Assembly: GCA_903873995.1 (NCBI GenBank)
Contig: CAIQQQ010000142.1
Span: 1 to 60,821, forward strand
Direction of reading: 5' to 3'
Source: an uncultured Rhodospirillales bacterium
GTDB taxonomy: Bacteria > Pseudomonadota > Alphaproteobacteria > Acetobacterales > Acetobacteraceae
DNA: 60,821 nucleotides
Each line of letters begins with the position of its first letter. Within the stretch, counting starts at the first letter, position 1. Positions 30,394 through 49,718 of this stretch are shown one piece after another. The position numbers were made by a program, and so were the translations under genes. The notes under the pieces are model-generated. The model searched no databases. It was not told where the DNA came from and was given only the letters and a program-made list of their open reading frames with translations.

Positions 30394-31596
30394 ATGCGGC
30401 GTGTGGCGGTCTGGTTGGCGCTGACAATGGGTGCGGCCATCGCCCAGCCGGCGATCGTGGGGCATGGCGGACCTGTTCGGGCGATTGCGGCCGATGGTCA
30501 GCATGTGGTCTCGGGCGGCTTTGACGGCACGGCGATCGTCTGGCCGGAGGGCGCAGTGCTGCGCAGCCATGACGGCGCGGTGAATGCGGTCGCGCTCATG
30601 ACCGATGGCCGTGTGGTGACCGGCGGGGCGGACGGGCACGTCATTGTCAGCCGTGACGGCCGGGTCATGCGCGATCTGTGCTGCCATTCCGGCCCGGTGG
30701 CGGCATTGGCCGTCCAGGGCGAGCTGATCGCCTCAGCTGCCTGGGACGGAACGGCGCGGGTCTGGGACGGCTCGGATGTGGCGGTGTTTCAGGGCCATGA
30801 CGGCAATGTCAACGCAGTGGCCTTCGCGCCGGACGGAACCCTGATCACCGCGGGCTATGACGGAACGGTGCGCACCTGGCGCGATCCAGTTCGCGTTCTG
30901 CGGCTCGGCGTTCCGCAGAACGCTATGGTGACGGCGCCGGACGGCGAGATCGCGACAGCTGGTGCGGATGGGATGCTGCGCCTCTTCGCCGGCGACGCGA
31001 TGCGCGAGGTCATGATCGACACTGTGCCACTCACCGCGCTGGCGATCTCGCCTGACGGCGCCCAGCTCGCCGTGGCGAGCCTCGCAGGGACCATGATGGT
31101 GCTGGAACGCGTGAGCGGGCGCATCACCACCGTGCTGCATGGCACCGAGCGCCCGATCTGGGCGCTGGCGTTTGCGAAAGGCGAGATTGTGAGCGGCGGC
31201 GCCGCGGGCGTTGTCTCGCGCTGGGACGCGGGATCGGGCCGCAAGCTGGGATGGACAGGTGCGGCGCCGGTCATGCCGGACGTGCCGGCCGCCGATCGCG
31301 GCGCGCAGATCTTTCGCGCCTGCCAGGCCTGTCACACCATGACGGCGGATGGCGGCAACCGCGCCGGTCCGAGCCTTTACGGCCTCATCGGCCGCAAGGT
31401 CGGCACCTGGCCGGGGTATCGGTATTCGGAGGCGCTGATCCAAGGCGACATGGTCTGGACACCAGAGACCATCGACCGGCTGTTCGAGATTGGACCCGCC
31501 GCGATGCTGCCCGGCACGAAGATGCCCGAACAGCGCCTGACCGACCCGGCGGACCGGTCAGCCCTGGTGCAGTATCTTGCGCATATAGCGCCGTAA
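30394..31596 (+). CDS. Secreted WD40-repeat protein fused to C-terminal cytochrome c domain
   Basis: Signal MRRVAVWLALTMGAAIAQP; repeated GHGGPVRAIA..., SHDGAVNAVAL..., GHDGNVNAVAFAPDGTLITAGYDGTVRTW; haem motif CQACH with distal Met GTKMPEQ. Confidence 0.88.
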   Translation: MRRVAVWLALTMGAAIAQPAIVGHGGPVRAIAADGQHVVSGGFDGTAIVWPEGAVLRSHDGAVNAVALMTDGRVVTGGADGHVIVSRDGRVMRDLCCHSGPVAALAVQGELIASAAWDGTARVWDGSDVAVFQGHDGNVNAVAFAPDGTLITAGYDGTVRTWRDPVRVLRLGVPQNAMVTAPDGEIATAGADGMLRLFAGDAMREVMIDTVPLTALAISPDGAQLAVASLAGTMMVLERVSGRITTVLHGTERPIWALAFAKGEIVSGGAAGVVSRWDAGSGRKLGWTGAAPVMPDVPAADRGAQIFRACQACHTMTADGGNRAGPSLYGLIGRKVGTWPGYRYSEALIQGDMVWTPETIDRLFEIGPAAMLPGTKMPEQRLTDPADRSALVQYLAHIAP

Positions 31597-36557: not shown

Positions 36558-37745
36558 TTATCCGGCCGCGAGCCTCGCGGCCCGGGACCGGTCCGGCAAC
36601 GCCATCGCGCCCTGGTAGAGCGGGATGTCATGGGCCAGACCCCAGGCGATCGCATCCGGCGTGTCGGCATGACTCAGCACGATATTCCGGGCATCGGTCA
36701 GGACCATGTCGCGATCGATCCTGCCCAGCGTGTCTGACCACCGCAGCTCCATCAGATCGAGGCCGATGCGGCCGAGCTGAAACACCGCCAGCAGGTCGGC
36801 TGTGACGTTGCGCAGCATCAGCCGGTAGCCGCGCGAGCGGGCGAAGTCCCGCGCGAACACGAAGGCGGCCGGGTCGGACAGGATGTCTGCTGGCGCCAGG
36901 TCCAGCACCACATGCCCGCGCAGATGTCCGGGCAGAGACTCGTCCAGACGCAGGAATTCCGGCGCGAGAATCGACGCGACGTTGAGATTGATCGCAAACG
37001 GCCCGGCGTCGCGCATCTCGCCGGCAGAGGACAACAGGACCAGCATGCGCCGGTCGAGCGTTCGCGTGAGCCTTTGGAACAGCCATGGATCAAAGCGTGC
37101 CGCGTGGCCGGGCGCGAGACTTTGGGTGATTTCTTCGACCGACAGAAAGCGTTTTTCCCAGCAACGCTGGAACGTGCCGTCCGGCAGGCGGCGGCAGATG
37201 TCGCGACGTCGGGCGAAGGGAGCCACATCGGCGCGCACCAGAGCCGTTTCCATCGCGGCCAACACATGTGTGTTCAGAGCATTGGTCTCTGCCGGCGGGA
37301 CCGGTGTCGCCTTCTTGGGCGCCAAGGTTTCCGCAATGGCCGACAGCAGCCTGTCTGTGTCCTCCGGCAGGTGAAACTCGGTCCATAGCCCAGACGAAGC
37401 GGAGGCGTCTCGATCATCGTCGAACAGATGCTCAATCGCGGTCCGCGCGGACGCCAGCGCCGTGTCGGCTGGGCCGCGCCAGATCAGCACCATGTCTCGC
37501 CCGGGCAGATCGAACAGCTGGGCGCGATCCGCCTTCGTCAAAGGCTCGACGGCCTCGCGCGCGAGGCGGACCTGCAAAGGCAGCTTATGATCATGGCACT
37601 GCGCAGACAGCCGGATCATGCAGGCTTGCCGGGCGATGCCGGCGCGCTGGCAGTCCCGCACCAAGGTCACGAGGCGGGCGATTTCGGTGCGCGACGGGTC
37701 AGCTTCCTGGGACTCCGGTTCCAGATGCCGGATGGCGCTGCTCAT
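36558..37745 (-). CDS. Degenerate GGDEF/EAL-like protein (paralogue 1)
   Basis: Start MSSAIRHLEPES; DLPGRDMVLIWRG (GGDEF-like fold region), FAINLNVASILAPEFLRLDE resembling the EAL-domain VNLSARQL strand; no E-A-L catalytic motif seen. Confidence 0.55.
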   Translation of the reverse strand: MSSAIRHLEPESQEADPSRTEIARLVTLVRDCQRAGIARQACMIRLSAQCHDHKLPLQVRLAREAVEPLTKADRAQLFDLPGRDMVLIWRGPADTALASARTAIEHLFDDDRDASASSGLWTEFHLPEDTDRLLSAIAETLAPKKATPVPPAETNALNTHVLAAMETALVRADVAPFARRRDICRRLPDGTFQRCWEKRFLSVEEITQSLAPGHAARFDPWLFQRLTRTLDRRMLVLLSSAGEMRDAGPFAINLNVASILAPEFLRLDESLPGHLRGHVVLDLAPADILSDPAAFVFARDFARSRGYRLMLRNVTADLLAVFQLGRIGLDLMELRWSDTLGRIDRDMVLTDARNIVLSHADTPDAIAWGLAHDIPLYQGAMALPDRSRAARLAAG

Positions 37746-39322
37746 GACAGGATCTCCGAGGTGCGGCCGGCGCGTTGTGGTCCGTCCGTCCGCGGCGCGC
37801 GCGGTGCTTCGGGCTTCGGCGGCCGTCCGGTGGGGCTGCCGACCGGTCGGGGAGCCCCTTCGTCCAGCAGGCGGAGATTGGTGCAGCCGGCGCGGCCCGC
37901 CGTGCCCAAGGCGCTCGAACGTTCGATGCATTGGCGCAGCGTGCAGGCCGGCGCCTGGTGACAGACCACGATCCGCGCTGCGCCCAGCATGGCGTCCACA
38001 TGCCGGCCCTGAAAGCGCCGGATGCCGCGCGAGAGGCCCCAGCGCAAGGCGGCCTCGGTCTCGGCGCGCTGCAGCACGAAGCGCTGCGGCCCAAAGGAGG
38101 CGATCGCCTCATCGACCGCATCCGCTTCCGCCACCGCCAGATCGGCAAGCCGCGGTGACCAGTCCAGCTTCAAGAAATCGGGTTGCAGCGCCATGGGCCG
38201 GCACAGCGCCAGCGCCAGATGGGACACGCCGTCCAGCAACAGGGCAAAGCCTGACCGGGCCACGACCGCCCGCGCCCGGGCGAAGCCGGACGGGTCGGCC
38301 ATCGCCTCCATCAGATTGACCTCAACGCCCAGCAGGCCTGGCCCGCGCCCCTTCAGCCCAGCGGCCTGTGTGCACAGCATGGCAAACCGGTCGAACGCGG
38401 GGGACAGGATCCCGGCCACAGTGAGGTTGACATGCAGCGACGTGCCAGGCGGCGGGCGGTTCGCATGGCGCCCATGCTGCTCACCGGTTGGCTCAAAGGT
38501 CTGCTCATGGCTCTGTTCAGAACTCTGGGCCAAGATGTCAAGCGGCCCGAGGCTGCCGATCTGCTCGGTGAGAACCTCGATCATGCGTCGGTCGAGCCGT
38601 GTCGCGAGATGTCGGAACAAAAACGGATCATCGTTGACATGGCCGTGTGACGCGATGCGCGCCTCCAACGCCGCGATGGAGAACGTAACCTCGCGATAGA
38701 TCGGCGCAAGCATGCCCGGCTCGCCATGCCGCGGCGCGCCCTGGATCAGAACGGCGGTCTGACGCTGCAGAATGTCGCTGATCTCGGCGGTGCCGACCAC
38801 CGCCTCGACCGCGTCGAGCGCTGTGGTCTGAACCGCGATCTCCGGCGGCGGGAGACCAGGCCGTGGCGCCCGCGCCAGGCAGGACGAGACGTAGCCGGCA
38901 AGCTCTGCCATGTGCGTCTCGAATGGCCATACAGACACCAGCCGGACCTGCGCCGGCGTGTCCACCCGAAACAGCCGTCGCAGCACCTCGGGCACCGACG
39001 CGGGATCAGCGGCTCCCCCGCGGGTGCTCAGGCCGGCGTCGGACCTCGCGCCGGAACCGGACTGACATAACAAAACCAGGTCCCCGTTGGACAGGCCAAA
39101 GACCTGCCCGTTGTAGCGCGATGCCGTGTCCTGCAGGCAAGCGCGCGCGATGCGCATATGATGCGGACGTGGCGCCGGCGCCGAAAGTCGCGAAAGATGC
39201 AAGGCAATGGCCAACCGCCCGGCCGGCTGGCGCCCCTGGCGCTGGACAGCCTCATGCAGCTGCCGCTCGATGCCGGCAGCGATCAAGCTTGCCGCGCTTT
39301 GGCTGTTCGCGCCCGTTCTCAT
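37742..39322 (-). CDS. Degenerate GGDEF/EAL-like protein (paralogue 2)
   Basis: FGLSNGDLVLLCQSG degenerate GGDEF-like; FRHLATRLDRRMIEVL and SLHVNLTVAGILSPAFDRF match paralogue 1; ATGA 4-bp overlap with paralogue 1. Confidence 0.55.
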   Translation of the reverse strand: MRTGANSQSAASLIAAGIERQLHEAVQRQGRQPAGRLAIALHLSRLSAPAPRPHHMRIARACLQDTASRYNGQVFGLSNGDLVLLCQSGSGARSDAGLSTRGGAADPASVPEVLRRLFRVDTPAQVRLVSVWPFETHMAELAGYVSSCLARAPRPGLPPPEIAVQTTALDAVEAVVGTAEISDILQRQTAVLIQGAPRHGEPGMLAPIYREVTFSIAALEARIASHGHVNDDPFLFRHLATRLDRRMIEVLTEQIGSLGPLDILAQSSEQSHEQTFEPTGEQHGRHANRPPPGTSLHVNLTVAGILSPAFDRFAMLCTQAAGLKGRGPGLLGVEVNLMEAMADPSGFARARAVVARSGFALLLDGVSHLALALCRPMALQPDFLKLDWSPRLADLAVAEADAVDEAIASFGPQRFVLQRAETEAALRWGLSRGIRRFQGRHVDAMLGAARIVVCHQAPACTLRQCIERSSALGTAGRAGCTNLRLLDEGAPRPVGSPTGRPPKPEAPRAPRTDGPQRAGRTSEILS

Positions 39323-41283: not shown

Positions 41284-42288
41284 ATGCAAGCATGCGCGCC
41301 CGCCCGGCATTCCGTCCGGCGCATCGCAACGTCGGTCATCATGTGCGTAAGCCTGCTCGGCGGCTGCGCTCAGGGACAATTTTCAACCCAGACCACGCGC
41401 ATCGGCGCGGATGATGGAACTGACACCTGCCGCCGTTATCTGGTGGCCCTGGATGCGCAGGGCGATTATTTCGGCGCCGACATCCTAAGGGGGGCTGCGG
41501 TCGGCGCAGCGTTGGGTGGGCTCACCGGCTTGCTGGCCGGGCAGAATCTCAAAAGCACCCTGATCGGCGCCGGCGCCGGCGCCGTCCTGGGCGGCGGTGC
41601 CGGTTACTGGTCCTCCCTGCAGCAGCAATCGCAGGATCGCGCGGTGCTCGCCTCCCAGATGACAAGCGATCTACAACGCGAAAATGGCGAGATCGGGCGT
41701 GCACAGTTCGCCTTCGATGCGCTGGTCGACTGCCGGTTCCATCAGGGCCAGACAATCCAGGCGGATTATCTGGCCCATCGGATCGACCGGCCCGCGGCTG
41801 TGGCGCAGATGGCGCAGGTGAAGCAGCGCGCCGAGCACGATCTGGAGGTCGCCCACCGCCTCAACGACCAGATCGCCGGACGCAGCCAGCAGTTCGAGGT
41901 GGCAGCCGACAAGATCCAGCCCGGCGCCGGGGCTCCGCTCGCAAGCCCGCCGCCGCAGCGCCAGGCGGTGGTGCGGCGGGCATCTCCGCTGAAGCTGCAG
42001 CCCAACCCGAATTCGCCGGATGTCGGCAAGGTGGCAGCGCGCGAGCCGGTGCAGGTCGGCACCAACCGCGGCGGATACGCGCTGGTGCAGACCAGCAACG
42101 GCACGCGCGGCTATGCGGCGGTGGACATCTTCCAGGGAGCCACGGTCCCGCCGGTCACGAGTGCAGCGCAGCCGAACTCTGATGTCCGCACCCTCGCGGG
42201 CAGCAACGCGGCGCGGCGAGACGATTTTGCGCAGAGTGTGGCGGTCTCCGAACAGGCGACACGTAGCGGCTTCGAACTCGTCGGCTGA
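41284..42288 (+). CDS. Lipoprotein with glycine-zipper hydrophobic segment and C-terminal SH3-like domain
   Basis: Lipobox MCVSLLGGCAQG; GAAVGAALGGLTGLLAGQNLKSTLIGAGAGAVLGGGAGYW glycine zipper; KLQPNPNSPDVGKVAAREPVQVGTNRGGYALVQTSNGTRGYAAVDIF bacterial SH3-like. Confidence 0.75.
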   Translation: MQACAPARHSVRRIATSVIMCVSLLGGCAQGQFSTQTTRIGADDGTDTCRRYLVALDAQGDYFGADILRGAAVGAALGGLTGLLAGQNLKSTLIGAGAGAVLGGGAGYWSSLQQQSQDRAVLASQMTSDLQRENGEIGRAQFAFDALVDCRFHQGQTIQADYLAHRIDRPAAVAQMAQVKQRAEHDLEVAHRLNDQIAGRSQQFEVAADKIQPGAGAPLASPPPQRQAVVRRASPLKLQPNPNSPDVGKVAAREPVQVGTNRGGYALVQTSNGTRGYAAVDIFQGATVPPVTSAAQPNSDVRTLAGSNAARRDDFAQSVAVSEQATRSGFELVG

Positions 42289-45215
42289 TGGCGATTCTGG
42301 TTTGGCTTCTGGCGATGCTGCTCGCCGCGCTGCCGGTGCAGGCGGGCCAGCCGCCGCAGGAGCCGCTGCTCCGCATCGAGGCGGGCGGACATATCGGTGC
42401 CATCGCCCGCATGGCGCTGAGTGCGGATGGCCGCCTGCTGGCCACCGCCGGATTCGACAAGACCGTGCGCCTCTGGTCGCTGCCGGACGGCGAGGCACGC
42501 GGCGTGCTGCGTCCCCCGATCGGTGCGCGGGAGGAGGGCGAGCTCTACGCCGTGGCCGTGACGCCGGACGGGTCGCGCGTGTTCGCGGCCGGGGCCACCG
42601 GCGCCACCTGGGACGGCAGTTTCTCGATCTATCTGTTCGACACCTCCCGCGCAGCCTTCGCCGGGCTGCTCGGCGGCCTGCCGGCACCGGTCACGGATCT
42701 GGCTGTCTCGCCGGACGGCCGACTGCTGGCGGCCGGCCTCTCAAAAGGCGGCGTGCGGGTGTGGGACGCGCACAGCGGTACGGCGGTGTTCGACGACCAG
42801 GCCTATGCCGGCCCGGTCCGCAGCCTGGTGTTCGACCGTGCCGGCCGGCTCTACACAGCGTCCGGCGATGGCAGGCTGCGCGTCTACGACACGGCCCGGC
42901 GCCTCAAGACAGCCGATGCGGTATCTCCATCGGGCCTGCCGCCCTGGGGGCTTGCGCTGTCGCCGGACGGGTTCCTGCTGGCCACAACCTCCGAGACGGC
43001 GGACAAGGCCGGGCGTCTGCGGATCGACGTGCTGTCCAGCCGGACCTTGGCGCCGGTCCTCGCCCCAGACACCACAGGGCTAGTTGGGGAGGGCCTGCTC
43101 GCGGTCACCTGGGCGCGCGACGACCGCGGCGGCGTCGATCTGCTGGCCGGCGGCTACGCGCATGGGGCGGCCGGATATGTCGTGCGGCGCTGGGCCGATT
43201 TCGGGTTGGGCGGCAGCACGGACATACCCGTGGCGCATGACACGATTCGCCATATGCTGCCACTGCCAGGGGGCGGGGCGGTGTTCTCGTCCGAGGACCC
43301 GGGCTGGGGCATAATCGGGCCGCAGGGCAAGCTGACCCGCGCGCCGGCGCCACCGATGGCCGATCTGCGGCCGTCTCGCCAGCTTGGGATCTCGGTGTCC
43401 GATGACGGCGCCGTGGTGCGTTTCGCAACCGCTGCCGGGGCGCAGATATTCTCGCTGGCCGAGCGCAGCCTGACGCGCGACGCAGCCCCCCCATCGCCGC
43501 GCGCTGCCCCCAATCCCCGTCTGTCCGACTGGCAGGACAGCAGCGCGCCGAAGCTCGGCGGCGTGCGGCTGAAGCTCGATCGCGCGGAGTTCGCTCGCGA
43601 CGCCGCGTTTCTGCCGGATGGTGCGGGCGTGCTGCTGGCGACCGACACGCATCTGCGCATGTTCGGGCGCGACCAGCAGGAGATCGCCTCCGTCGAGGTG
43701 CCGGCCGCCGCCTGGGCGGTCGCGGTGTCGCCCGCGGCCAAGGTGGCGGTGGCCGCCCTGCTCGACGGATCGCTGCGCTGGTACGGCCTGGGGCCGGGCG
43801 AGCGGCTGGTGGAGCGCGCGGCCCTGTTCGCCCATGCCGACGGCCAGCGCTGGGTGCTGTTCACGCCGCAGGGCCTGTTCGACTGCGCCGATCTGGGCGG
43901 CGAGGACCTGGTGGGCGTGCAGCTCAACCGTGCGCGCAACCAGGCGCCCGAATGGTTGAGCCTGTCCCAGGCGTTTCGCATCCTGCACGCACCGGCCGCC
44001 CTCCGGGCGCGGGTGATGGGGCAGCCGGGCGCAACGCTGCAGTCCGGCATCGGCGATCTGCGCGACCGGCTCGAACGCCAGCCCACGATCGGGCTGCTGT
44101 CCGTGTGCGTGCCGGATGAGGCGGGCGGCTGCGCGCCGGTTGCGATGGCGGCCGGCGGTGGTGGCACATTGCCGCCACAGGCTTCGCGTGTTCGCGTGGT
44201 CGCGCGCCTCGCCGAGCGTGGGCGTGGGCTCGGGCCGATCGATGTGTTCGTGAACGAGCGCAACGCCGGCCGCCTGCCGCCGCCGGCCGCGAGCGGAGAC
44301 GTTACGGCGGAGGTTGCGGTCAGCCCTGGCGTGTCCACCATCACACTGCGCGCGTATGACGCGGCCGCGACGCTGTTCGCCGAAACACGGCCGCTGCGGC
44401 TTGCGCAGGACATGCCGCTGGGCGATGGGCCGCAAGCCGGTGGCCAGACGCCTGATACGGCGCCGCGCATGTATGCGCTGGTGATCGGCATCGACCATTA
44501 CGCCAACCCCGATCTCACCCTGCGCTATGCCGTGGCGGACGCCGATCGGTTCGCAGCCGAAATCGCCCGCGTCGCCAAGCCGCTGTTCGGCCCGCCCGTC
44601 ATCACCAAGCTGACCACGCCCGAGCAGACGACCAAGGCCGCGATCCTCAAGGCCTTCGACAGGCTCGCGGCCCAGATCCGGCCGCAGGACGTGTTCCTGT
44701 TCTACGTCGCGTCCCACGGCGTTCTGAACGAGGACACCAACGGTTTCATGCTGGTGCCGTCCGACATGAAGGACGTATCGTCGTGGCAGGCGATGGCCGC
44801 ACAGTCGATCGACGAAACCACCCTGATCGCAGCCCTTGCCCGCATCCAGGCGCGTGATTCCCTGCTGTTCCTTGACACATGTCACTCTGGCAAGGTCACC
44901 GCGGACAGCCTCGCCAATGTTGGCCATGACACCGGGCGCTATCTGCTGGCGGCATCAGGCTCGGTGCAGGAGGCGCTCGACAGCTTCGACGACCACAACG
45001 GCGTGTTCGTCTACGCGATGGACGAGGCCTTCAGCGGCCGCGCCGGCCAGGACGCGGACGGCAATCTCGGCGCGTTGGCACTCGGCGAGTATGTGGCGCG
45101 CCGGGTGGGGCAACTGGCACGCCAGAAACATCATGAGCAGGACGCCGTCTTTCGCGCCGCCCAACGCGAGCTGAGATCGTTTCCGATCGCGCATGTCGCC
45201 GTGCCAGCGAGATAG
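42288..45215 (+). CDS. Secreted WD40-repeat / caspase-family (C14) peptidase fusion
   Basis: Signal MAILVWLLAMLLAALPVQAG; WD40-like repeats (ADGRLLATAGFDKTVRLWSL...); C-terminal caspase p20 MYALVIGIDHYANPDLTLRYAVADADRFA, catalytic His in FLFYVASHGVL and Cys in LLFLDTCHSGKV. Confidence 0.92.
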   Translation: MAILVWLLAMLLAALPVQAGQPPQEPLLRIEAGGHIGAIARMALSADGRLLATAGFDKTVRLWSLPDGEARGVLRPPIGAREEGELYAVAVTPDGSRVFAAGATGATWDGSFSIYLFDTSRAAFAGLLGGLPAPVTDLAVSPDGRLLAAGLSKGGVRVWDAHSGTAVFDDQAYAGPVRSLVFDRAGRLYTASGDGRLRVYDTARRLKTADAVSPSGLPPWGLALSPDGFLLATTSETADKAGRLRIDVLSSRTLAPVLAPDTTGLVGEGLLAVTWARDDRGGVDLLAGGYAHGAAGYVVRRWADFGLGGSTDIPVAHDTIRHMLPLPGGGAVFSSEDPGWGIIGPQGKLTRAPAPPMADLRPSRQLGISVSDDGAVVRFATAAGAQIFSLAERSLTRDAAPPSPRAAPNPRLSDWQDSSAPKLGGVRLKLDRAEFARDAAFLPDGAGVLLATDTHLRMFGRDQQEIASVEVPAAAWAVAVSPAAKVAVAALLDGSLRWYGLGPGERLVERAALFAHADGQRWVLFTPQGLFDCADLGGEDLVGVQLNRARNQAPEWLSLSQAFRILHAPAALRARVMGQPGATLQSGIGDLRDRLERQPTIGLLSVCVPDEAGGCAPVAMAAGGGGTLPPQASRVRVVARLAERGRGLGPIDVFVNERNAGRLPPPAASGDVTAEVAVSPGVSTITLRAYDAAATLFAETRPLRLAQDMPLGDGPQAGGQTPDTAPRMYALVIGIDHYANPDLTLRYAVADADRFAAEIARVAKPLFGPPVITKLTTPEQTTKAAILKAFDRLAAQIRPQDVFLFYVASHGVLNEDTNGFMLVPSDMKDVSSWQAMAAQSIDETTLIAALARIQARDSLLFLDTCHSGKVTADSLANVGHDTGRYLLAASGSVQEALDSFDDHNGVFVYAMDEAFSGRAGQDADGNLGALALGEYVARRVGQLARQKHHEQDAVFRAAQRELRSFPIAHVAVPAR

Positions 45216-45471: not shown

Positions 45472-45855
45472 GTGACAGCGCCGATGTCAGGGTTCAAGAG
45501 CATGAGGGCGATGGAGACGATGGGCGAACCTCGGATCAAGGCCGGGCTGTGGGTGCAGATGGCGCTGCGGATGGGCCAGGCGGATGGCCGGTTCGCGGCC
45601 GTGCTACGCCGGGGCGACTCGGATTCGGGCGGCATTCTGACCGTTCTGCGCGGCAGGCGCGGCCTGTCGGTGCTGTCTCAGGTGCGCACCTCCGACGGCC
45701 AGCCGGCCTGGCTGCGCGCAACCGGGCCGGACCCGGTGGACCAGGCGACGGCGGATGCCTATGTTGCCCGTCAACTGAGCTTCGATCCAGATCTTTGGGT
45801 CCTGGAATTCGAGGTCCCCGATGATATGCCGCCGTTCGACGGAAAAGTCGTTTAG
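45472..45855 (+). CDS. DUF1491 family protein
   Basis: IKAGLWVQMALRMGQADGRFAAVLRRGDSDSGGILTVLRGR...WVLEFEV. Start uncertain (ATGs at 45472 and downstream). Confidence 0.8.
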   Translation: MTAPMSGFKSMRAMETMGEPRIKAGLWVQMALRMGQADGRFAAVLRRGDSDSGGILTVLRGRRGLSVLSQVRTSDGQPAWLRATGPDPVDQATADAYVARQLSFDPDLWVLEFEVPDDMPPFDGKVV

Positions 45856-45901
45856 CTCTCTGCTGCGATCTGTCTCCACTCTGTCTGTTGAGGAACGCCT
45901 T

Positions 45902-47026
45902 ATGCGAGCAGCCCTGGTCACCGTCTCCGCCGTTGCCGCAGCGATCGGAGCCGCCTCCGGCCCAGCTGCGGCTCAGCCGATCTCGGGTTTCTATGTTGGC
46001 GCCTCTGGCGGGGCTGGGTTCCTGGAGGATGGCCGCATCCGTGGCTTCGTGCCGTCCACGGCGCCGCAGATCGCACCGTCTGGCACGGTGCTCAGCTACA
46101 AGACCGGCTGGGTCGGACTTGCCAGCATCGGCTATGCTCTGGGCAACGGGGTGCGGCTGGAATTGGAAGGCAACGCGCGCTCCAACGATCTCAGCGCCGG
46201 CGCCAAGACTGCCAACGTCTCCGGGCGCAGCGGCAAGGAGACGAAATATGGCGCCTTCGGCAACGTGTTCTTCGATCTCGATATCGGCTCGCCCTATGTA
46301 TTCCCCTATCTCGGCGCGGGTGCGGGCTATCAGTCGGTGACGCAGAAATACAGCCAGACCGGCACCAATTCGACCGGCGGCACGGTCACGGAGCGATTCG
46401 ATCAGAGCAAGGGCGCATTCGCCTACCAGGCGATCGCCGGCCTGTCCTTCCCTATCCCGGGCGTGGTCGGCCTGTCCGCCACCGCCGAATATCGCTACGT
46501 GGGCCTTGCCGGCAAACGTTCCTATGTCGGCAGCCTGACCAATGCCGGCGTCACATCCTCCGTCACCCGCAAAACGAGCGACGACAACAACCACGATCTT
46601 CTGATCGGCGTGCGCTACGCCTTCAACGTGGTTCCGCCAGCGTCCCCCGCAGCCGTGCCGGTCCCCGTGGCGGCGATTGCGCCGGCGCCGGCGGCGTCGC
46701 GCTCCTACCTGGTGTTCTTCGACTGGGACAAGTCCGACCTCACCGAGCGCGCCCGCCAGATCATCGCGGAGGCGGCCCAGGCCTCGACGCGGGTCGCGGC
46801 CACCAGGATCGAGGTTGCGGGCCACGCCGACCGCACCGGCACGGCCCAGTATAACCAGGCCCTGAGCCGCCGGCGGGCCGCGATGGTGGCAGCCGAGCTG
46901 GTCCGCCTGGGCGTTGCGGCCACTGCAATCTCGGTCAGCTCGTTCGGCGACACGCGACCGCTGGTGCAAACCGCAGCCGGCGTGCGCGAGCCGCAGAACC
47001 GCCGGGTCGAGATTGTGCTGAAATAA
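45902..47026 (+). CDS. OmpA-family outer membrane beta-barrel protein (paralogue 1)
   Basis: Signal MRAALVTVSAVAAAIGAASGPAAAQ; FYVGASGGAGF barrel; OmpA domain FFDWDKSDLTERARQIIAEAA...GHADRTGT...NRRVEIVLK. Confidence 0.94.
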   Translation: MRAALVTVSAVAAAIGAASGPAAAQPISGFYVGASGGAGFLEDGRIRGFVPSTAPQIAPSGTVLSYKTGWVGLASIGYALGNGVRLELEGNARSNDLSAGAKTANVSGRSGKETKYGAFGNVFFDLDIGSPYVFPYLGAGAGYQSVTQKYSQTGTNSTGGTVTERFDQSKGAFAYQAIAGLSFPIPGVVGLSATAEYRYVGLAGKRSYVGSLTNAGVTSSVTRKTSDDNNHDLLIGVRYAFNVVPPASPAAVPVPVAAIAPAPAASRSYLVFFDWDKSDLTERARQIIAEAAQASTRVAATRIEVAGHADRTGTAQYNQALSRRRAAMVAAELVRLGVAATAISVSSFGDTRPLVQTAAGVREPQNRRVEIVLK

Positions 47027-47219: not shown

Positions 47220-48428
47220 ATGACCACCTTTCGCACCGCCCTGTCGGCGGCAAGCTTTCTCAGCGCGATTGCGGCAGTCTCGTCAGCGCCCGGCACGGCC
47301 ACTGCCCAGCCGATCACAGGTCTGTATATGGGCGCGGGGCTTGGCTTCAACATGCTGAGCGCCACCAACGGTTCGGTGGACAAGCTGCCCGGCCGCTCGT
47401 CGCCGCCGCTGGCCCTGAGTTCGTCCACCAAGCTGAAATGGTCGAGCGGCTTCGGCCTCCTCGGCAGCGTCGGCTATGGCGTTGGCAACGGCGTGCGCCT
47501 GGAGCTGGAGACCAGCTACCGTACCAACACGCAGCAGGCGCAGACCGTCAAAACGACGTCGTCGCAGACGTCGCAGAGCACCGGCAGCTCCACGGGCACA
47601 GAAAACAAATACGGCCTGATGGCCAACGCGCTGTATGACTTCAACATCGGCGAACGCTGGATCTTCCCATATATCGGCGCCGGCTTTGGCTACCAGCTCG
47701 CGAACTGGAGCAAGGTCTCGGTCTCGGGCACCGGACTCGACTACGGCGACGGCTTCGTCACCACGGTCTCGCCGAGTGGCACGATCGGCCAGGTGGCTTA
47801 CCAGTTCATGGTCGGCGCGTCCTTTCCGATCAGCTACGTGCCCGGTCTCTCGGTCACTGCCGAAGCGCGCTACATGGGGCTCGCCGGCACGCGTAACTAC
47901 AGCGGCCAGGGCTACACGCAGTATATTTCGTCGCAGTTCAAGAACAACACGACCAAGGTCCACGCATCAAACGACTCCAACACCACCCTGATGTTCGGCT
48001 TCCGTTACGCCTTCGACCCGGAGGGCGTGAACGAGGTGCCTGTGCCGGGTGGTCCCGTCGGCTACGTGCCGCCGCAACAGCCCGTGGCCCTGCCCGCGGT
48101 GCGCAGTTTCCTGATATTCTTCGATTTCGACCGCGCCGACCTCACGCCGCGCGCGCGTGACATTGTGGCCGAAGCTGTGCGCAGCACGCAGCGGGTGCCG
48201 GTCACACGGATCGATGTCTCCGGGCACGCTGACCGCACCGGCAGCGAGGTCTACAACCAGCGCCTGTCGATGGCGCGCGCCGAGTCGGTGGCGCAGGAGA
48301 TGCAGCGCTGGGGCGTGCCGCGTCAGATGATCGACATTCACAGCTATGGGGACACGCGGCCGTTGGTGCCCACCAGCACCGGCGTACGCGAGCCGCAGAA
48401 TCGCAGGGTTGAAATCGTCTATAGGTAA
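47220..48428 (+). CDS. OmpA-family outer membrane beta-barrel protein (paralogue 2)
   Basis: Signal peptide; LYMGAGLGFNML barrel; FFDFDRADLTPRARDIVAEAV...GHADRTGSEVYNQ...NRRVEIVYR. Confidence 0.94.
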   Translation: MTTFRTALSAASFLSAIAAVSSAPGTATAQPITGLYMGAGLGFNMLSATNGSVDKLPGRSSPPLALSSSTKLKWSSGFGLLGSVGYGVGNGVRLELETSYRTNTQQAQTVKTTSSQTSQSTGSSTGTENKYGLMANALYDFNIGERWIFPYIGAGFGYQLANWSKVSVSGTGLDYGDGFVTTVSPSGTIGQVAYQFMVGASFPISYVPGLSVTAEARYMGLAGTRNYSGQGYTQYISSQFKNNTTKVHASNDSNTTLMFGFRYAFDPEGVNEVPVPGGPVGYVPPQQPVALPAVRSFLIFFDFDRADLTPRARDIVAEAVRSTQRVPVTRIDVSGHADRTGSEVYNQRLSMARAESVAQEMQRWGVPRQMIDIHSYGDTRPLVPTSTGVREPQNRRVEIVYR

Positions 48429-48492: not shown

Positions 48493-48650
48493 TGAGGTGT
48501 CTAAACGGCCCTTAAATCGCGTCGAGCTTTGTTGACATCTGGTTTAGGCCGCAAAGCGAGACTAGGTTCCGGCAGATGACTGGCGGGCATCGTCCGCTGG
48601 TCCGCTGCCCTGCCAGTGTGGGGTCTGACGAAACCGAGGAGAGAAATTCA

Positions 48651-49718
48651 ATGAAGCTCCGTTCCGCCCTTCTGGCCGCGACCATTCTGGCCGCTCCCGC
48701 TGCAGCCATCGCCCAGCCTGTGTCCGGCCTGTATGTCGGCGCCGGCGTTGGCCCGAACTATCTGACCGAACTGACCGCCAAGGCGCCGACCGGCTCCGCC
48801 AAGATCCGCGAGAGCATCGGCTTTGTCGGTCTCGCCAGCGTTGGTTACGGCCTCGGCAATGGTCTGCGCGTTGAGCTGGAAGGCAACTTCCGCAACAACA
48901 CGCCGAAGCTGCGCGGCACCAACACCTATGGCGGCGGCACGTTCCAGACCTACGGAGCGATGGTCAACGGGCTCTATGACTTCGACATGGGCCCGGCCTC
49001 GATGTTCAACCCGTATGTCGGCGCCGGCGCCGGCTATGCGCTGAACTCACTGAACCCGTTCAATGCCTACGGCCCGGGCGGCACGCCGAACGCGTCGGTG
49101 AAGAACACCACCAAGGGCGGCTTCGCGGCTCAGGCCATCCTCGGCAACACTTTCCCGATCGCCTCCGTTCCCGGCCTCGGCGTGACCCTCGAGTACCGCT
49201 TCCTCGCCGTGTTCGACAATCAGAAGTTCGCCACCACCGGCACCGCTGGCAACTCGACCCTGAAGCTCAACAACCAGTATGATCACTCCATCCTGGTTGG
49301 CCTGCGCTACGCCTTTGGCGTCGCCCCGGCCCCGGTTGCAGCAGCCCAGGCCCCGGTCGCCCCGACCCCGGTTCCGGCCGTGGTTCCGGCCCGCAGCTAC
49401 CTGGTGTTCTTCGATTGGGACAAGGCTGACCTGACCGCCCGCGCGCAGCAGATCATCGCCGAAGCCGCCCAGGCCTCGACCCGCGTCGCCTCGACCCGCA
49501 TCGACGTTGCCGGCCATGCCGACAAGTCGGGCACGCCTGCCTACAACCAGGGTCTGTCTCTGAAGCGCGCCAACAACGTGGCCGCCGAGCTCGTACGCCT
49601 CGGCGTGCCGCGCAACGCGATCAGCATCACCGCCTTCGGCGACACGAAGCCGCTGGTGCCGACCGCTGCCGGTGTGCGCGAGCCGCAGAACCGCCGCGTC
49701 GAGATCGTCCTGAAGTAA
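48651..49718 (+). CDS. OmpA-family outer membrane beta-barrel protein (paralogue 3)
   Basis: Signal MKLRSALLAATILAAPAAAIAQ; LYVGAGVGPNYL barrel; FFDWDKADLTARAQQIIAEAA...NRRVEIVLK. Confidence 0.95.
   Translation: MKLRSALLAATILAAPAAAIAQPVSGLYVGAGVGPNYLTELTAKAPTGSAKIRESIGFVGLASVGYGLGNGLRVELEGNFRNNTPKLRGTNTYGGGTFQTYGAMVNGLYDFDMGPASMFNPYVGAGAGYALNSLNPFNAYGPGGTPNASVKNTTKGGFAAQAILGNTFPIASVPGLGVTLEYRFLAVFDNQKFATTGTAGNSTLKLNNQYDHSILVGLRYAFGVAPAPVAAAQAPVAPTPVPAVVPARSYLVFFDWDKADLTARAQQIIAEAAQASTRVASTRIDVAGHADKSGTPAYNQGLSLKRANNVAAELVRLGVPRNAISITAFGDTKPLVPTAAGVREPQNRRVEIVLK

What the first reader, a model, noticed from the sequence alone, without database searches (positions are those of the whole stretch)
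41284..45215. Lipoprotein (glycine zipper + SH3) translationally coupled to a secreted WD40-caspase
Seen: the lipoprotein stop overlaps the start of a 975-aa protein with signal peptide, WD40-like region, and a caspase domain with an intact His/Cys dyad (YVASHG, LDTCHSG). The lipoprotein has a lipobox, a long glycine-zipper segment and an SH3-like C-terminus. Known: bacterial caspase-like (orthocaspase/C14) proteases are often coupled to sensor domains, and some act on pore-forming partners. Inference: an envelope surveillance or self-lysis module in which the WD40 part senses a ligand and the protease cleaves an envelope partner; the coupled glycine-zipper lipoprotein is the first candidate substrate or anchor. 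Export to the periplasm distinguishes it from cytoplasmic caspase defence systems.
Basis: partly seen in the sequence, partly recalled or inferred. Interest (0 to 1): 0.7.

Follow-up and report, generated by a model that had tools for sequence, protein, structure and literature searches.

The report
TagQ-like lipoprotein paired with periplasmic caspase
Two coupled genes encode an outer-membrane lipoprotein related to TagQ, the damage sensor of a bacterial stabbing weapon (the type VI secretion system), and an exported caspase-type protease; in this bacterial family the pair is found almost only in genomes that carry the weapon, which suggests that a caspase helps to control it.

Summary
A 334-aa lipoprotein (41284-42288) overlaps, at TGATG, a 975-aa exported protein with two predicted beta-propellers, an Ig-like domain and a C14 caspase domain. 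His810, Cys865 and the pocket Asp863 are invariant in 46 homologues.

Two things were missed. First, the lipoprotein's first two thirds (lipobox, glycine zipper, helical hairpin, two cysteines) are homologous to TagQ, the outer-membrane damage sensor of Pseudomonas H1-T6SS (hhalign 99.3%, E 3e-20). Second, in Acetobacteraceae the pair tracks the T6SS: 46 of 47 pair genomes have it against 72 of 203 others (p 1e-16). In five genera that vary, agreement is complete (15/15 and 7/7). The only T6SS-less genome with the pair has stop codons in both genes. In several lineages the pair lies inside or beside T6SS clusters; the one read in full also carries kinase, phosphatase, TagF and Fha.

Best reading: a TagQ-type sensor arm of T6SS post-translational control in which a periplasmic caspase takes TagR's place. 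Protease activity, substrate and the signalling step are inferred. More distant pairs occur without T6SS, so the module is older than this role. I found no evidence for self-lysis, and no published caspase-T6SS link in the library searched.

The parts
41284..42288 (+). TagQ-like outer-membrane lipoprotein, 334 aa
   Evidence: ORF and translation; NCBIfam TagQ 52 bits over aa 10-168; hhalign to TagQ E 3e-20
41284..41367 (+). lipoprotein signal peptide and lipobox; acylated Cys28 at 41365-41367
   Evidence: lipobox in 39 of 39 homologues, +2 residue never Asp
41476..41628 (+). glycine-zipper helical hairpin (aa 65-115)
   Evidence: Pfam YMGG zipper, sub-threshold; model
41638..41916 (+). helical hairpin (aa 119-211) with conserved Cys150; Cys49 lies N-terminal to the zipper; both align with TagQ cysteines
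   Evidence: alignments, model pLDDT 80-95
41959..42120 (+). bacterial SH3 domain (aa 226-279)
   Evidence: PF08239 sub-threshold, Foldseek bacterial SH3
42184..42270 (+). conserved C-terminal helix with the SNxARRDxFAxSV...GFEL motif (aa 301-329)
   Evidence: alignment; kept without SH3 in L102; model
42286..42290 (+). TGATG stop-start overlap
   Evidence: sequence; similar spacing in orthologues
42288..45215 (+). exported double-propeller, Ig-like, C14 caspase protein, 975 aa
42288..42344 (+). Sec-type signal peptide (about aa 1-19)
   Evidence: sequence MAILVWLLAMLLAALPVQA; hydrophobic N-terminus in homologues; read by eye, no signal-peptide predictor run
42366..43886 (+). two tandem beta-propellers (about aa 27-533)
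   Evidence: Pfam WD40; model; Foldseek to double-propeller AIP1 1nr0 and to 2ymu
44085..44408 (+). Ig-like beta domain (about aa 600-707)
   Evidence: model secondary structure; assignment by inference
44460..45167 (+). C14 caspase domain (about aa 725-960)
   Evidence: PF00656 49.9 bits; PDB 3bij E 5e-4
44715..44717 (+). catalytic His810
   Evidence: 46 of 46 homologues
44880..44882 (+). catalytic Cys865; Asp863 two residues before is also 46 of 46 (S1-pocket Asp in metacaspases)
   Evidence: pocket role from general knowledge of the family

Best explanation
The two genes form a conserved envelope module: an outer-membrane lipoprotein of the TagQ superfamily, with a periplasmic double-propeller caspase most likely held at or near it. 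In Acetobacteraceae, the family of this window, the module serves the type VI secretion system. It most likely acts as the outer-membrane/periplasmic sensor arm that feeds the kinase-phosphatase-Fha (threonine phosphorylation) control of T6SS assembly, in the role that TagQ-TagR play in Pseudomonas H1-T6SS, with a caspase in place of the formylglycine-enzyme-like TagR. Proposed working: envelope damage or contact is sensed by the lipoprotein (zipper, SH3) and/or the propellers; the caspase, predicted to prefer Arg/Lys, then cleaves an envelope regulator or partner lipoprotein and thereby releases or represses T6SS assembly. Shown by sequence: gene pairing, export signals, lipidation signal, TagQ homology, invariant catalytic residues, phyletic and physical linkage to T6SS. 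Inferred: tethering, protease activity, basic specificity, substrate, direction of control.
For: TagQ homology: NCBIfam TagQ 52 bits over aa 10-168, against 20-26 bits for zipper-only lipoproteins; profile-profile 99.3%, E 3e-20 over 193 columns; both conserved cysteines align with TagQ. T6SS co-occurrence: VipB in 46 of 47 pair genomes against 72 of 203 others, Fisher p 1e-16. Five genera that vary: 15 of 15 T6SS+ genomes have the pair, 7 of 7 T6SS- genomes lack it (p 6e-6). The one exception, G045 (single contig, no VipB, no TssK), has in-frame stops in both genes. A TagS-like ABC gene in the same 250 genomes does not track T6SS (p 0.30). Physical linkage: in G231 (L099) the pair lies between hcp and vgrG in a T6SS cluster with TssC, TssB, TssA, ClpV, Fha, TssK, TssL, TssM, TssF, TagF, a Ser/Thr kinase and a PP2C phosphatase; in L004, L009, L007 and L090 it precedes vgrG-DUF6931, followed by fha in the first three. 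These placements need at least 5 changes on the tree. In L086 a Ser/Thr kinase gene follows the caspase by 136 bp. His/Cys/Asp 46 of 46. TagQ as outer-membrane damage sensor upstream of PpkA: PMC11881912, PMC10482370.
Against: In the window itself the pair is not near T6SS genes; G000 carries its T6SS on other contigs. 72 T6SS+ family genomes lack the pair, so it is not required for a T6SS. Pairs outside the family occur in genomes without VipB (G289, G349, G251, G545, G650). The TagQ model's own cut-off (300 bits) is not reached, and a pairwise BLASTP of the window lipoprotein against a Pseudomonas TagQ finds nothing; the homology rests on profiles. No protease activity, interaction or substrate is shown. 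Fha is not specific to pair genomes (42 of 47, against 60 of 72 T6SS+ genomes without the pair).
Confidence: 0.6

Rival explanations
1. General envelope-signalling protease module: lipoprotein plus periplasmic caspase sense envelope state and signal to whichever regulator a lineage uses; the T6SS link in Acetobacteraceae is one deployment or an indirect correlation.
For: Pairs without T6SS outside the family: next to a CHASE2-adenylate cyclase in L182, and among response regulators and a hybrid histidine kinase with a second caspase in L155. Lipoprotein paralogues away from T6SS genes.
Against: The within-genus concordance, the twin pseudogenes in T6SS-less G045 and the repeated placement in T6SS clusters are hard to explain by chance or shared ancestry.
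Confidence: 0.22
2. T6SS self-protection: the lipoprotein and/or caspase is a periplasmic immunity factor that destroys or blocks an incoming effector from sister cells.
For: Periplasmic, T6SS-dependent, and next to vgrG in several lineages.
Against: No adjacent conserved effector gene; a 975-aa multi-domain protease is unlike known immunity proteins (own knowledge); the TagQ homology points to signalling; neighbours differ between lineages while the pair stays.
Confidence: 0.1
3. Self-lysis or abortive defence: the caspase is activated by a ligand and cleaves the glycine-zipper lipoprotein into a lytic form.
For: Caspase plus membrane-active-looking zipper; bacterial caspases activating gasdermins are known (PMC9612521).
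Against: The zipper protein is a TagQ relative; PADLOC gives only generic caspase and repeat hits; the phyletic link to T6SS is not expected for a defence module.
Confidence: 0.06
4. Envelope protein quality control or T6SS biogenesis: the caspase trims an envelope or T6SS component during assembly, without a sensing role.
For: T6SS linkage without any direct proof of signalling.
Against: Most T6SS+ genomes lack the pair, so no core step depends on it; the TagQ relation suggests regulation.
Confidence: 0.1

Closest known systems
TagQRST-PpkA-Fha pathway of Pseudomonas aeruginosa H1-T6SS
   Same: Lipoprotein N-terminal two thirds homologous to TagQ; a periplasmic partner gene next to the lipoprotein; kinase, PP2C phosphatase, TagF and Fha in the T6SS cluster that holds the pair in G231.
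   Different: The partner is a WD40-caspase, not FGE-like TagR; no TagS-like ABC gene in the window's genome or in 33 of 47 pair genomes at E<1e-30; the lipoprotein adds SH3 and a C-terminal helix; the pair is often away from the T6SS cluster.
Other envelope activators of T6SS (RtkS in Serratia, TslA in Acinetobacter, TssW in Acidovorax)
   Same: Periplasmic or outer-membrane proteins that act on PpkA or TssM to start or place the T6SS (PMC10482370, PMC12607579).
   Different: None of these is described as a protease or caspase in the passages read; no sequence comparison was made here.
Bacterial orthocaspases / C14 caspases with WD40 repeats
   Same: C14 fold, His-Cys dyad, C14 plus WD40 combination, which is common in bacteria (WD40 in 10.9% of sequences; PMC3501461).
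   Different: Exported, caspase C-terminal, two propellers N-terminal, obligate lipoprotein partner, tie to T6SS.
EACC1-associated caspases (NCBIfam NF047832)
   Same: Best NCBIfam match of the caspase domain (66 bits).
   Different: Below the curated cut-off of 140 bits; those are intracellular conflict systems (family background: PMC7159879, listed, not read here).

Membership tests
TagQ (NF041250 equivalog) | score above the curated cut-off of 300 bits | tested here: not met
   52.1 bits
TagQ superfamily (remote homology) | lipobox, glycine zipper, helical hairpin and two conserved cysteines in register | tested here: met
   hhalign 99.3%, E 3e-20, 193 columns; cysteines aligned
TagQRST operon | TagR (FGE) and the TagS/TagT ABC transporter encoded with TagQ | tested here: not met
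   caspase in the partner position; no TagS-like hit in G000
T6SS post-translational control module | genetic linkage to T6SS | tested here: met
   in Acetobacteraceae only; not met in distant pairs
T6SS post-translational control module | loss of the gene alters Fha phosphorylation or T6SS assembly | not testable with these tools
   needs experiment
Peptidase C14 / orthocaspase | PF00656 domain above cut-off | tested here: met
   49.9 bits against 21.4
Peptidase C14 / orthocaspase | intact His-Cys dyad | tested here: met
   46 of 46 homologues
Peptidase C14 / orthocaspase | proteolysis after Arg/Lys | not testable with these tools
   Asp863 conserved; activity untested
EACC1-associated caspase | NF047832 cut-off | tested here: not met
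   66 of 140 bits
Caspase-gasdermin or other defence system | recognised defence-system model or a lytic effector next door | tested here: inconclusive
   only a generic PADLOC caspase and a HEAT/ARM repeat hit; neighbours examined by Pfam show none, but gasdermin models were not searched specifically

The most novel reading that the evidence does not exclude
A caspase-gated secretion weapon: in Acetobacteraceae, proteolysis by an outer-membrane-tethered periplasmic caspase is the switch that converts envelope damage or contact into T6SS assembly. It would be a caspase used as a signalling protease in bacterial retaliation rather than in cell death, and the wider lipoprotein-caspase module would be a general trans-envelope signalling device.
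Probability: 0.33. Interest if true: 0.88.

Novelty: new variant of a known kind. Interest (0 to 1): 0.72.

Why it matters
How a T6SS senses outer-membrane damage is an open question (PMC11881912 leaves the signal between the outer membrane and PpkA unknown). This pair offers a TagQ relative whose partner has an assignable enzymatic activity, so the signalling step becomes testable with one catalytic mutant. It also gives exported bacterial caspases, which are common in surveys but mostly without a role, a specific predicted job that is not cell death.

Tried and rejected
1) TagS displacement: I tested whether the pair replaces TagST. TagS-like ABC genes do not track T6SS at all in this family, so no displacement claim is made. 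2) Fha as discriminator: present in 42 of 47 pair genomes but also in 60 of 72 T6SS+ genomes without the pair, so the link is to T6SS in general. 3) C-terminal 'ARRD' motif as the caspase's cut site in its partner: it is conserved, but also in lipoprotein paralogues not next to a caspase, so it is kept only as a hypothesis. 4) Universal T6SS dependence: rejected, because distant pairs lack VipB. 5) Direct BLASTP of lipoprotein against TagQ found nothing; only profiles show the relation. 6) Conserved neighbours other than T6SS genes: none found.
Full report
What is there. The two ORFs are at the stated places. The lipoprotein stop and the caspase start share a base (TGATG). Orthologous pairs keep a stop-to-start distance of -1 to +13 bp in most cases, so tight spacing is a property of the family, not an accident of this genome. 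The lipoprotein carries a lipobox (39 of 39 homologues; +2 residue never Asp, hence outer membrane by the usual sorting rule). The model gives a glycine-zipper hairpin (aa 65-115), a confident helical hairpin (119-211), an SH3 fold (226-279) and a tail helix (301-329). The caspase protein has a signal peptide by eye, two propellers, an Ig-like domain and a C14 domain. His810, Cys865, Asp863, Asp751 and Asp801 are invariant in 46 homologues down to 29% identity. The nearest solved sequence relative of the C14 domain is Geobacter GSU0716 (3bij, E 5e-4).

What the lipoprotein is. The best NCBIfam match is TagQ (52 bits over aa 10-168), while zipper-only lipoproteins give 20-26 bits, so about half of the score comes from outside the zipper. 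Three bona fide TagQ proteins were taken from a TagQ search (523, 519 and 503 bits); one of them (L152) was read in its TagQRST-T6SS context. Profile comparison with 39 pair lipoproteins gives 99.3%, E 3e-20, over 193 columns from the signal peptide through the helical hairpin. In the joint alignment both conserved cysteines (49 and 150) fall on TagQ cysteines (one relative, L131, has the first cysteine shifted by a few columns). Intermediate forms exist in the same bacterial family next to real TagR/TagS-like genes (L127: FGE-sulfatase domain plus ABC permease plus lipoprotein; L131: ABC ATPase plus permease plus lipoprotein).

Link to the type VI secretion system. VipB (TssC) occurs in 118 genomes, including 46 of those 47, against 72 of the other 203. 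Shared ancestry could inflate that figure, so I compared within genera: in five genera that hold the pair and vary in T6SS, all 15 T6SS+ genomes have the pair and all 7 T6SS- genomes seen lack it (members negative for everything are not all printed by the tool, but no discordant genome can be hidden, because both positive lists are complete). The sixth such genus holds G045, a single-contig genome with neither VipB nor TssK: it still has both genes in place, but each has an in-frame stop, while its two relatives G125 and G176 have T6SS and open genes. That is what relaxed selection after T6SS loss predicts. As a control, a TagS-like ABC permease of similar patchiness in the same genomes shows no association with T6SS (21 of 38 against 97 of 212, p 0.30).

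Physical linkage. In G231 (L099, L161, L162) the pair sits between hcp and vgrG within one cluster: Ser/Thr kinase, TssF, TssC, TssB, TssA, ClpV, Hcp, caspase, lipoprotein, VgrG, DUF6931, Fha, TssK, TssL, TssM, TagF, PP2C phosphatase. G195 (L091) has the same order. In L004 and L009 the pair is followed, in the same orientation, by vgrG-DUF6931-fha; in L007 likewise after an inverted stretch; in L090 by vgrG-DUF6931. In L086 a Ser/Thr kinase gene follows the caspase by 136 bp. On a quick caspase tree, the linked arrangement needs at least five changes; whether these are gains or losses is open. In the window the pair is not near T6SS genes, but the genome has two VipB and two Fha genes elsewhere.

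Limits. Outside the family the pair also exists (L155, L156, L158, L182, L183; the lipoprotein also in L157, cut at the contig end), and none of the genomes of these six loci gives a VipB match. There it lies among other signalling genes: a CHASE2 cyclase in L182, a hybrid histidine kinase, response regulators and a second caspase with DUF4384 in L155. Solitary, more distant caspases with Tat-like N-termini (L108, L109, L111) lack the lipoprotein and come from genomes without VipB. The module is therefore older and broader than its T6SS use.

Mechanism. TagQ is the outer-membrane lipoprotein needed for H1-T6SS assembly after outer-membrane damage, upstream of PpkA (PMC11881912), and works with periplasmic TagR (PMC10482370). 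By homology and by position in the cluster, the simplest reading is that this lipoprotein has the TagQ-like role and the caspase the place of TagR. What a protease would add is an irreversible step: cleavage of a regulator, of the kinase's periplasmic part, or of the lipoprotein itself. The conserved Asp two residues before the catalytic Cys suggests Arg/Lys preference (general knowledge of metacaspases). The lipoprotein tail helix contains a conserved [RK]RD, but paralogues without an adjacent caspase have it too, so it may be a docking element as well as a cut site. Activity, tethering, substrate and sign of control are not shown.

Conserved pairing, export and envelope surveillance stand; self-lysis has no support; anchor is likelier than substrate. 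Literature searches for a caspase-T6SS link found none, with the caveat that only open papers were searched. Bacterial caspases with WD40 repeats are themselves well known (PMC3501461), so the new element is the combination and its tie to T6SS. I rate it a new variant of a known kind (T6SS envelope sensing) with interest 0.72.

Noticed in passing
window 45821-47026, 47220-48428, 48576-49718: Three tandem paralogous outer-membrane beta-barrel plus OmpA proteins just downstream of the pair. Not conserved next to the pair elsewhere. OmpA was proposed as a contact sensor for T6SS placement in other bacteria (PMC10482370), which may be coincidence.
   Followed up: partly
window 36558-37931 and 37742-39322 (minus strand): Two overlapping, mutually similar-looking ORFs (457 and 526 aa) without Pfam match; by eye they resemble degenerate EAL domains.
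   Followed up: partly
window 30460-30963: Weak WD40-type match (E 6e-9) in a long open frame, seen in the search.
   Followed up: no
L112-L118, L122, L123, L125: Paralogues of the lipoprotein away from the caspase, keeping the C-terminal motif, in genomes that also have the pair; in L122 the paralogue lies beside two Ser/Thr kinase-like genes (one checked with Pfam), about 17 kb from TssC.
   Followed up: partly
L182:10880-13572: Outside the family, a short secreted protein and a CHASE2-adenylate cyclase follow the lipoprotein-caspase pair in a genome without VipB.
   Followed up: partly
L155:3281-8129: A second caspase (with DUF4384) directly follows the WD40-caspase, among response-regulator and histidine-kinase genes.
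   Followed up: no
L108, L109, L111: Solitary WD40-caspases whose N-termini look like Tat signals (RR motif), with no lipoprotein and from genomes without VipB.
   Followed up: partly
G152:C1:418266-418781: A T6SS_FHA_C match in a genome without VipB: possible T6SS remnant.
   Followed up: no
L099:14279-14869 and other T6SS clusters: DUF6931 gene lies between vgrG and fha in several Acetobacteraceae T6SS clusters: a possible unnamed accessory T6SS gene.
   Followed up: no
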